This document shows, one piece after another, positions 17,701 through 20,700 of a DNA stretch of 64,000 bases. Position numbers and translations under genes: made by a program. Below the pieces are notes generated by a model. It made no database searches and was not told the origin of the DNA. It worked only from the letters and a program-made list of their open reading frames with translations. Every line of letters starts with the position of its first letter. The stretch's first letter is position 1. This stretch comes from Capitulum mitella (lineage: Eukaryota; Arthropoda; Thecostraca; Pollicipedomorpha; Pollicipedidae), in contig CP099845.1 of assembly GCA_030062745.1 (NCBI GenBank), positions 15,292,903 to 15,356,902 of the forward strand, read 5' to 3'.

Positions 17701-20700
17701 ACGTCGTGGAACGTCACCAATCGGCGACGCGCAACAGTCGCGGGACAGCCGAGACCAGTCGCGCGGGAAAATCGCGAGTTTTTGTCGTCTGTGTTAACCG
17801 AGTTCAGTTCGTCTCAGTTCCAAAAGCTCATTCCGATAATGCCTCACTAACAAGACCAACACGCGACGACCGGCTAGTCGCAAGCTGTCCAGGTGTCTTG
17901 GCTGAGCCCAGCTGGACTGAACTGGACAAACCTGGCGTCTGGTTGCGTATCTCAGCGCAGCTGAGCTGGGCTGACCAGAACAGATGTGACGTCTGGCCCG
18001 TCCTCTGAGCTGAGCCGATCTGAACTCAAATGAACTCAGCTGAGTTCAGCCTGACTGGCCTGGACAAACTTGGCATATGGCCATTTCTCTGAGCCGAGCT
18101 AAGCCGAATGGAGCTGGACTGACCTGGACATACCTGACGTCCGGCCACTCCTCTGAGCTGAGATAAGCAGCGCCAAACTGAGTTGGACTGACCTGAACAA
18201 ACCTAGCGTTCAGGTCCCGCCGGAGGGCGTCCAATTCATCGCGGTCCACCGTCATCTCCGTGTCCATGATGACGCCGTACCGCTCGATAACGGCCTCCGT
18301 ACACTGTACGCGCGGACTCAGCTTACGGGGTCGTACCAGCGAGCCACCTGTCTCGTGACTGCAACATGTTTATGCACAGATAGCAGAAATGGTGCAGTCG
18401 GCCAACACAGCAACAAATAAGGACACACTAAATGATGACAGTGATGTCTCACAATGATGTCTGATTTAAGACTTAATACGCGCACTGGAAGCGGGTGGGT
18501 CTTTCCCCCCCCCCGCCTGTTTTTCCTCGAAATCTCGAGAACGGATCGGAGCTGGTTGCTGCTACTTTGTGTCATTTATAGCAACTGAATAACTCCTCTG
18601 ACGCGAAAAAATCGAAAATCGGCCGGAAATTTCCGAAGTTTCAAGCACTGGAAGTCAAGCAAACAATGAAAATAACGACTGGCGCTCACAAATGGGAACT
18701 TTGTAAAATGACTAACGCTCTACTTAAGATCACCGTTTGACCACAATCAGGCGACGTCATTCGGGAACAAGTGGGATGTACCAACAACAAAGCCAGGGTC
18801 AATATCGGTTAAGGCCACCAAAGGTCAAGGTTAACCAGCTTGTGACCTGATCCAGATTTCCTTTGCAACATGTCGGTTTGAAATATGCATTCAAAAACCC
18901 TAATAAAAATACGTGTGCACACACTGATACCCTGACGTATACCAGGGTCAGTAAAGGTCAAGGTCATCAAAGGCCAAGGTCAAATATTTTGCGACCTGGT
19001 CCAGATATGTTTTGTATCAAATATGCATTCAAAGACCCTTATAAAAACATGTGCGCGCACATGGATATACTTATATATACCAGGGTCAGTGCACGTCAAG
19101 GTCATCAAAGGTCAAGGGTAACTATTTTGTGACCTGGCCCAGGTTTGCTTTGCAATATGTCGATTTGCATGAAATACGCATTCAAAGACCCTACTAAAAA
19201 CATGTTTGGCACATTGATATTCATATGTATATACATGGCCGCATATGCATGCATACATACATACATATTATATAGATTTCTACGTTCCACAGCGCTCAAA
19301 CCGTGTTACTGGGTTCAGTATAACGACACAGCTCAAACACAGACAGTCGATGTCGCTAACAGCCTAGCGTCCGTCTAGACTCTCTGGTGTGGACTGTATG
19401 TTTTATGGACACTAGAGATCCGCGACATTTAAATGGGCTACGCTCGGCTCGGGCGAAAAGTAAGGAGGAACAGGTGGGAAAATTTAGGGGAAGCAGGCGC
19501 AGAGTGCTACAATTCAGCAGCATGAAAGGAAAACCATCCAATTCAAGATGGAATACGGCCCTACATGAGAATGCTACAATTCAGCAGCATAAGAGGAACA
19601 CCATCCAATTCAAGATGGCATTCGGGTCCTAGCCGAGAATGCTACAATTCAGCAGCATGAAAGGAAAACCAGCAAATTCAAGCTGGTATAGGCGAGGCAG
19701 GAGCTCTAATTCAGGAGCATGAGGAACGCTCCAATTCAGGCGCGCTGGGATAGGAATGAACCAATTTCCAGAGTGGCAATTCAGCCATCCAGGAGACCTC
19801 CCATTCAAGAGGTCAAGGCGAGGGCAAAAGGAAACTCCCGAGCCTCGCGGACTATCATTTTTCTGCTATACGTCACTCCACATCACTGCACTGCCGCACA
19901 CCATCACTGACAACGAAGTTCCGTGTTGAGACGTCCGAACAGTTTGAGCGCCAGACAGGAAGAGGCCGAGGACGTGTTTACGCCAAGCTTATATAGCGCG
20001 AGCGAAAGAGGTCGCGAGACAAAGGGAGATGTATTTTGGGGACGGAAGAAACGTAAAAGCAAACAGGTGGCCGGCCGGGGCGCGAAACCGCCGGCGCAAG
20101 GCGGCCGGCCGGCCGGCCAGGGCGTCGCGGCCCCACGAGGAACAAAGGCGGAGCCGACACAGATGGCCGGCCGGGTCTGGCGAGACGTGCCGGACCGCCG
20201 GCGCAGGCCGGCCGGCCGTCGGACCAGCCGGCCGGGGCTTCGCCGCCCCACGGACAGGTCGCTGCACGACCGACGGCAACAGTTGACATAAAACTTACTT
20301 TAGGCAAAAAACCTTATCCAAGGTCAATGACCTCGCTTCACCTTTTTTGACTTTGCGGAGGTAAGTAAACGCCCTGAAAATAAGCCAAAAGATGCGCGCA
20401 GCGCAATTATTTACACTCAAGCTACCCCGTGCTGCTCGAAATCTGATCTGCAAAAGATGAAAACATGACGCCATAGGTCAATGAACTGACACGCCCTCGA
20501 CCCATAACCCTCGTCAAGACCCCAAATGAATGGAAATTGTCGCATTCCAAATTTTAACGCTCAAACAAACACCCTTTTCACGTTTCGTTCGAAAAGTCGT
20601 ACGAAATGGCCTGTAAGGGCCGAGAGTGTCCACAGTTGATCCTTTAGATCTCATTTGACCTTGAAGATATTGGCGTAGGGTCATGAAAATTGCACACGTG

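What the first reader, a model, noticed from the sequence alone, without database searches (positions are those of the whole stretch)
19505..19814. Hairpin array: one loop, many different self-complementary stems
Ten stem-loops in 310 bases all present AATTCA or CATTCA in a 6-10-base loop, yet use seven different stems (CCATC/GATGG, ATGCT/AGCAT, ACCAGC/GCTGGT, GCTC/GAGC, CGCT/GGCG, TGGC/GCCA, GACCTC/GAGGTC). Ordinary tandem repeats would keep the stem and the loop together. Here both arms change while pairing is kept, which implies either selection on structure with the loop as recognition element, or a process that writes the arm on one side of the loop as the inverse of the other (template switching or an inserting loop that inverts its target). 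Seen directly; the mechanism is inference.
Basis: seen in the sequence. Interest (0 to 1): 0.88.

Follow-up and report, generated by a model that had tools for sequence, protein, structure and literature searches.

The report
Hairpin array in a retrotransposon LTR
The ten little hairpins are real and belong to the terminal repeat of a retrotransposon family scattered through this genome; they look like a row of RNA landing sites that keep one loop while their stems change, probably for a protein that handles the element's RNA.

Summary
On the minus strand ten hexaloops (UGAAUU nine times, UGAAUG once) lie in 19505-19814; 9 of 10 have a good stem, and shuffles never give more than one. Seven different stems keep 37 of 42 pairs; 2 of 5040 arm permutations, the true order included, do as well. 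G.U exceeds A.C 181 to 17 on the minus strand, so the selected form is minus-strand RNA, not a DNA palindrome.

The array lies in a 931-bp solo LTR (19351-20281, minus) of a BEL/Pao element: TG...CA ends, 5-bp target duplications, at least 39 further copies; a copy with interior has DUF1759, Peptidase_A17 and integrase domains. A second LTR family has the same loop and similar spacing with other stems. The array lies downstream of a TATA box, probably in R (inferred).

Best reading: a multivalent protein-binding platform, most likely for packaging by the element's own nucleocapsid; a host RNA-binding protein is the main rival. Neither binding nor transcription was tested. The template-switch idea is not supported. 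My literature searches found no description of it.

The parts
19351..20281 (-). Solo LTR (family F1) of a BEL/Pao retrotransposon, 931 bp, TGTTGCC...GCGACA on the minus strand
   Evidence: Shared block found in copies L001-L020; same LTR flanks the BEL/Pao interior on C4; no second LTR in the window
20282..20286 (.). Target-site duplication, TCAAC on the minus strand
   Evidence: 4 of 5 bases equal to the other side; 8 of 20 copies have an exact 5-bp duplication
19346..19350 (.). Target-site duplication, TCGAC on the minus strand
19988..19995 (-). TATA box TATATAAG, LTR position 287; a start of transcription about 30 bases further is predicted, not shown
   Evidence: TATATAA present in 12 of the 15 copies aligned out of 20
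19505..19814 (-). Array of ten hexaloop hairpins, five units of two, predicted to lie in R
19795..19814 (-). Hairpin G, loop 19802-19807 UGAAUG, stem GACCTCT/GGAGGTC
   Evidence: score 7
19774..19787 (-). Hairpin F, loop 19778-19783, stem TGGC/GCCA
   Evidence: score 4.5
19727..19744 (-). Hairpin E, loop 19733-19738, stem CGCGCC/GGAGCG, one mismatch
   Evidence: score 5.5 over a slightly longer stretch
19703..19718 (-). Hairpin D, loop 19708-19713, stem GCTCC/AGAGC; C.A closing pair here, U.G in 16 of 20 copies
   Evidence: below the cut-off
19668..19687 (-). Hairpin B3, loop 19675-19680, stem ACCAGCT/TGCTGGT with U.U next to the loop
   Evidence: score 4.5
19639..19658 (-). Hairpin A3, loop 19646-19651, stem ATGCTGC/GTAGCAT
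   Evidence: score 7
19598..19621 (-). Hairpin B2, loop 19607-19612, stem CCATCT/GGATGG, extended to 9 pairs here
   Evidence: score 9
19571..19590 (-). Hairpin A2, loop 19578-19583, stem ATGCTGC/GTAGCAT
   Evidence: score 7
19534..19551 (-). Hairpin B1, loop 19540-19545, stem CCATCT/GGATGG
   Evidence: score 6
19505..19522 (-). Hairpin A1, loop 19511-19516, stem TGCTGC/GTAGCA
   Evidence: score 6
19403..19408 (-). CATAAA, candidate poly(A) signal, LTR position 874; would place the array inside R with a short U5
   Evidence: present in 11 of the 15 copies aligned out of 20; a role is inferred

Best explanation
The feature is part of a solo LTR of a BEL/Pao retrotransposon (shown). In the element's RNA it would fold into up to ten short hairpins, five units of two, that present the loop UGAAUU; selection in the active lineage kept the loop and the pairing while unit duplication and paired substitutions changed the stems (supported by comparison). 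Because the array lies between the TATA box and a likely poly(A) signal it should be in R and so be present at both ends of the genomic RNA (inferred). The most likely work is multivalent binding: each loop is one site for an RNA-binding protein, most likely the zinc-knuckle nucleocapsid part of the element's Gag, so that the row of loops marks this RNA for packaging (inferred). My estimates: BEL/Pao LTR 0.97; selected sense-strand RNA structure 0.9; array in R 0.8; packaging by Gag 0.45.
For: LTR: shared 931-bp block with TG...CA ends, 8 of 20 copies with exact 5-bp duplications and 4 more with 4 of 5; the same LTR on both sides of a C4 interior with DUF1759, Peptidase_A17 and Integrase_H2C2, and after the polypurine tract of a second BEL/Pao copy on C14. 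RNA: pairing 1081 of 1200 cells against 27-53% slid; G.U 181, A.C 17; 8 of 60 positions mostly G.U, none mostly A.C, 4 mostly mismatched; sense folds more stably than antisense in 7 of the 7 copies tested out of 20 held. Paired change between units. Second family: 295 of 378 cells paired against 32-53% slid; commonest loop spacings 27 and 40 against 29 and 38-39 in the F1 units A/B; one F1 linker compared with four F2 linkers (two of them from one locus) scored 5, 1, 5, 5, matched or beaten by 4, 74, 5 and 3 of 2000 shuffles. TATA box upstream in F1 and TATA-like sequence in some F2 copies. Two zinc-knuckle-like motifs, CX2CX4HX4C and CX2CX3HX4C, stand in separate frames of the Gag side of the C4 copy (seen by eye). 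Retroviruses use constant-loop hairpins: GACG tetraloops are involved in packaging (PMC516450, passages).
Against: No binding, expression or probing data. In 16 of 20 F1 copies an eleventh TGAATT follows the array without a stem (score 0 in both C4 LTRs), and F2 has an unstemmed one before it in 6 places set aside, so the hexamer may not need a stem. Only 160 of 200 loops are exactly TGAAT[T/G]. Copies within F1 show decay, not compensation: 41 kept, 39 broken, 2 double; loop, stem and linker are about equally conserved, 0.934, 0.929, 0.920. Retroviral packaging signals generally lie between the primer site and gag, though in some viruses they take in the whole 5' UTR (PMC5086612, passages); in the three internal pieces of the C4 copy none of the 5 sense TGAAT[T/G] sites has a stem of score 4. 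The sense-strand bias is weak in the decayed F2 (G.U 43, A.C 28). A BEL/Pao copy with 37% amino-acid identity is flanked by 294-bp direct repeats, presumably its LTRs, with no such array, so BEL/Pao elements do not need it in general. Start of transcription and poly(A) site are not mapped.
Confidence: 0.5

Rival explanations
1. The hairpins bind a host RNA-binding protein that exports, stabilises or translates the element's RNA, in the manner of the post-transcriptional control elements of some retroviral leaders or the Rex-responsive R regions of deltaretroviruses (these analogues are recalled, not taken from a call).
For: Same anatomy fits: sense RNA, probable R region, many equal loops. R would be at the 5' end of the mRNA, where translation is controlled.
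Against: I could tie no host protein or known motif to UGAAUU; a search for this hexamer with hairpin and loop listed 9 papers that by title and abstract start are unrelated. No Rfam family reached threshold. Neither fact excludes a host protein.
Confidence: 0.3
2. Loop-loop contacts: AAUU inside the loops lets hairpins of two RNAs, or of the two ends of one RNA, kiss, for dimerisation, end-joining or strand transfer.
For: AAUU is self-complementary; R would be at both ends. The Ty3 dimer is said to be kept by short palindromes at the 5' ends (PMC11381356, abstract).
Against: Only four A-U pairs per contact by inspection, and the outer loop bases U and G have no partner. Not computed.
Confidence: 0.1
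3. No present function: an ancestral hairpin was duplicated in tandem, and pairing among units is inherited from it.
For: Three of five units are plainly tandem copies; the copies now look neutral.
Against: The more diverged units have different stems that still pair (2 of 5040 permutations), and a second family has yet others; inheritance alone would not change both arms.
Confidence: 0.06
4. Double-stranded DNA sites for a transcription factor or a cruciform.
For: The hexamer with its arms is palindromic in form.
Against: G.U pairs on one strand only (181 against 17; 8 positions against 0) mean nothing to duplex DNA.
Confidence: 0.02
5. Template switching or an inverting insertion writes each second arm.
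For: Inverted arms beside one constant core.
Against: Mismatches and one-strand G.U pairs instead of perfect arms; tandem-unit spacing and similar linkers.
Confidence: 0.02

Closest known systems
BEL/Pao LTR retrotransposons (Belpaoviridae)
   Same: Interior domains, LTR length within 0.2-1.2 kb, polypurine tract before the 3' LTR, short target duplications (ICTV profile PMC8742986 read whole)
   Different: A hairpin array in the LTR is not mentioned in the ICTV profile; the words hairpin and secondary structure do not occur in the main text of the BEL/Pao survey PMC3118150 (term search only). A different BEL/Pao copy here lacks it
GACG-tetraloop hairpins of retroviral packaging and dimer signals
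   Same: Hairpins with one constant loop in the leader of a retroelement RNA (PMC516450, passages)
   Different: Tetraloops, in the leader; here hexaloops, ten, inside the LTR
Structured long R regions of retroviruses
   Different: No multi-unit array of one loop is described in the passages seen
LTRs with embedded RNA-gene sequences (Cassandra, Helenus, Ajax)
   Same: RNA-gene-like sequence inside LTRs of dispersed families (PMC10886601, abstract)
   Different: Those derive from 5S rRNA or tRNA; no tRNA gene and no Rfam match at threshold here
Arrays of protein-binding hairpins such as CsrA-binding RNAs or phage packaging signals (recalled)
   Same: Works like them: constant loop, free stems, many copies
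   Different: No relation by descent suggested or tested

Membership tests
BEL/Pao LTR retrotransposon | Pao-type peptidase (Peptidase_A17) in the interior | tested here: met
   C4 copy, E 1.3e-47; the window copy itself is a solo LTR and has no interior
BEL/Pao LTR retrotransposon | Integrase and Gag-region domains | tested here: met
   Integrase_H2C2 1.1e-9, rve 3.5e-5 (24.4 bits, under its 32.6 cut-off), DUF1759 6.6e-11; 3 of the 6 frames given had no family
BEL/Pao LTR retrotransposon | LTRs with TG...CA ends and short target duplications | tested here: met
   8 of 20 copies exact 5 bp, 4 with 4 of 5, 8 without a readable pair (by eye)
BEL/Pao LTR retrotransposon | Polypurine tract before the 3' LTR | tested here: met
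   acacggggggcggga before the C4 3' LTR; similar context in L014, L017 and the C14 copy
BEL/Pao LTR retrotransposon | tRNA primer-binding site after the 5' LTR | tested here: inconclusive
   The bases after the C4 5' LTR do not begin with TGG; no tRNA was compared
Retroelement packaging signal | Binds Gag or nucleocapsid and is needed for RNA packaging | not testable with these tools
   needs binding or packaging experiments
Retroelement packaging signal | Lies in the transcribed 5' end | tested here: inconclusive
   TATATAA upstream in 12 of 15 copies aligned; ends of the RNA not mapped
Known RNA family (Rfam 15) | Match at gathering score | tested here: not met
   0 matches in the window
Chance palindromes | No more hairpins than in shuffled sequence | tested here: not met
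   9 against at most 1 in 2000 shuffles

The most novel reading that the evidence does not exclude
A lineage of BEL/Pao elements carries in its R region a modular, multivalent RNA address label: an amplifiable row of hairpins with one hexaloop, free to change its stems, present at both ends of the genomic RNA and read by the element's own nucleocapsid. I know of no packaging signal proposed for this group, and it would be a natural series for measuring how avidity and loop identity set RNA selection.
Probability: 0.35. Interest if true: 0.68.

Novelty: new variant of a known kind. Interest (0 to 1): 0.5.

Why it matters
Replication of BEL/Pao elements is poorly understood (ICTV profile PMC8742986), and in what I read no cis-acting RNA signal is described for them beyond the primer site and polypurine tract. 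An array in which the loop stays and the stems turn over shows which part is read, gives a clean test object for RNA selection by retroelement proteins, and may serve as a structural mark for finding related LTRs that sequence search misses: the window LTR gave no BLAST match at 1e-3 to the three F2 copies compared (L054-L056), yet they share loop, spacing and similar linkers.

Tried and rejected
Coding reading: no ORF of 80 aa or more overlaps the array on the minus strand; one of 81 aa (19387-19632) overlaps part of it on the plus strand and was not pursued. tRNA: none. Rfam: none at threshold; at a lax threshold, mir-297 (E 0.00014 and 0.63, under its gathering score) falls on a simple-repeat neighbour at 19218-19278 and one sR3 hit has E 4.2. 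LTR pair within the window: none among the printed self-matches of 60 bases or more, hence a solo LTR. DNA palindrome and template switching: disfavoured by the strand bias. Array as a general BEL/Pao trait of this genome: not seen in one other copy flanked by 294-bp direct repeats; the piece fetched next to another BEL/Pao copy (L095) showed no recurrent loop either, but its LTR was not identified. My guess for the 5' LTR of the C14 copy missed (L090 held no LTR). L057, a pattern hit, had no hairpin of score 4. Papers: searches listed nothing that describes such an array in an LTR, as far as titles and abstract starts tell; one search (BEL Pao with packaging and genomic RNA) found 0 papers, but its phrase may fail on the printed form with a slash. 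Most subscription papers are not held.

Avoided: RNA models and the alignment tool that prints a consensus, because the genome tool asks for observation only on proviral stretches; pair counts were made in scripts instead.

Full report
What is in the window. Ten AATTCA/CATTCA hexamers occur in 19505-19814. On the minus strand they are six-base loops, TGAATT or TGAATG. With G.U pairs 9 of 10 reach a stem score of 4.5; outside the array 1 of 89 such hexamers in the window does. Dinucleotide shuffles give at most one such hairpin in 2000 trials.

Which strand. Over 20 genome copies, the six positions on each side of the ten loops pair in 1081 of 1200 cells (900 Watson-Crick, 181 G.U); 17 cells are A.C, which would be G.U on the other strand, and 102 are other mismatches. 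Sliding one arm by 1-3 bases gives 27-53%. By position, 48 of 60 are mostly Watson-Crick, 8 mostly G.U, none mostly A.C, 4 mismatched. These cells are related by descent, so they are not 1200 independent trials; the 8-to-0 count by position, which still counts the repeated hairpins A and B more than once, is the fairer figure. In the 7 copies folded out of 20 held, the minus-strand (sense) RNA was the more stable each time; z from -1.71 to -4.19 in sense against -0.53 to -2.12 in antisense, 60 shuffles each.

How the array is built. Three units at 67-68-base spacing are plain tandem repeats. Successive loops are 24, 45, 25, 33, 29, 39, 29, 38 and 29 bases apart, which I read as five units of two hairpins: G-F, E-D, B3-A3, B2-A2, B1-A1. 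The alike units share stems; B3 differs from B2 by a two-sided change (T-A to G-C), and E, D, F and G have yet other stems. With the seven distinct stems, 37 of 42 pairs form; only 2 of 5040 assignments of 3' arms to 5' arms reach this, the true one included, and the best assignment with every arm misplaced gives 30. Tandem duplication followed by paired substitution is the simplest history.

What it belongs to. The block 19480-19830 has 40 scored matches in the genome, itself included, the other 39 at 87-92% identity, out of 135 first-look candidates. Twenty were fetched; the shared block runs over 931 bases, 19351-20281 in the window, from TGTTGCC to GCGACA. By eye from the printed ends, 8 of 20 copies (L004, L006, L007, L008, L012, L016, L018, L020) have an exact 5-bp target duplication and 4 more (L001, L005, L009, L013) match in 4 of 5; the other 8 give no readable pair. 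This is an LTR; the window copy is solo. On C4 two such LTRs in the same direction lie 7.6 kb apart and the interior, read in separate pieces, has DUF1759, Peptidase_A17 and Integrase_H2C2, that is, a BEL/Pao element; its LTRs are 91.6% identical and the 3' one follows a polypurine tract. A second BEL/Pao interior on C14 (65% amino-acid identity in the highest-scoring piece) is followed by the same kind of tract and an LTR of this family, 83% identical to the window copy and with most of the array.

Second family. A pattern of three TGAATT at 15-45 spacing occurs 402 times in the genome, 112 for the reversed control; overlapping matches of one array count several times. With the TTCCTT linker between two loops it is 108 against 2. 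Among the hits is another LTR family, F2 (L054-L056, L061-L089), whose pieces are 65-83% identical to the query copy and which is therefore probably older. Its copies begin near TGTTGCCG and end near CAACA; one, L065, has an exact CTCTC duplication. Its loops are TGAATT with stems such as CTCTCT/AGAGGG, CACTCT/AGAGTG and CTCTCT/AGAGAG (where only stems of score 3 or more were printed). Counted without that filter over 15 loci, 63 loops were kept and 6 set aside as an unstemmed leader copy; 295 of 378 cells pair, against 32-53% slid; the G.U excess is weak there (43 against 28). The commonest loop spacings are 27 and 40, total 67, against 29 and 38-39 in F1, though decayed copies vary. One F1 linker set against four F2 linkers, two of them from L054, is matched or beaten by 4, 74, 5 and 3 of 2000 shuffles. 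The window LTR gave no BLAST match at 1e-3 to L054-L056. So loop, spacing and similar linkers persist while the stems differ.

Place in the RNA. A TATA box at LTR position 287 (12 of 15 aligned copies hold TATATAA; L003, L004, L006, L009 and L010 were not in that alignment) lies about 190 bases before the first loop, and CATAAA at 874 (11 of 15) follows the array. If these are the start and poly(A) signals, the array is in a long R and present at both ends of the genomic RNA. This is inference.

Limits. Copies within F1 decay much as expected after insertion: loops, stems and linkers are almost equally conserved (0.934, 0.929, 0.920), 160 of 200 loops are exactly TGAAT[T/G], and stem changes are 41 one-sided kept, 39 broken, 2 two-sided. 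The case for selection rests on differences between units and between families. An unstemmed TGAATT follows the array in 16 of 20 F1 copies. Another BEL/Pao copy (C1, flanked by 294-bp direct repeats that are 98% identical) has no array.

Mechanism. Constant loop, free stems, many copies and sense RNA point to a protein that reads the loop, with multivalency. The element's Gag region shows zinc-knuckle-like motifs in separate frames of the C4 copy (by eye), and constant-loop hairpins serve packaging in retroviruses (PMC516450, passages; general siting of packaging signals from PMC5086612, passages), so packaging is my first choice at about 0.45; a host factor for export or translation is next. 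Nothing here shows binding.

Known or new. The element is an ordinary BEL/Pao LTR; the array is not described in the listings of the searches that I ran or in what I saw of the papers opened (only PMC8742986 was read whole). I class it as a new variant of a known kind: a cis-acting structured RNA signal of an LTR element.

Noticed in passing
22000-24000: CpG is almost absent (observed/expected 0.05) in one 2-kb block; the next 2 kb has 0.44 and the rest of the window 0.67-1.10. Perhaps a methylated gene body or a foreign insert.
   Followed up: no
18793-19231: Tandem repeats of about 138-150 bases rich in AAGGTCA beside the LTR; similar sequence lies in L090 (C14:3717300-3718700).
   Followed up: no
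L002, L011, L092: These LTR copies leave the family at the same point (about LTR position 853); L002 and L011 go on with a similar CCCTATTCCCGG sequence, which hints at a subfamily with another 3' end.
   Followed up: no
L014, L017: Two LTR copies share both flanks, the 5' one resembling the polypurine-tract side of the interior, so they may be segmental duplicates or a non-autonomous form.
   Followed up: partly
15290-16294: Reverse transcriptase fragment (RVT_1, 3.2e-11) on the minus strand.
   Followed up: no
27768-28718: Long diverged repeats of 70-75% identity with an open frame over part of them.
   Followed up: no
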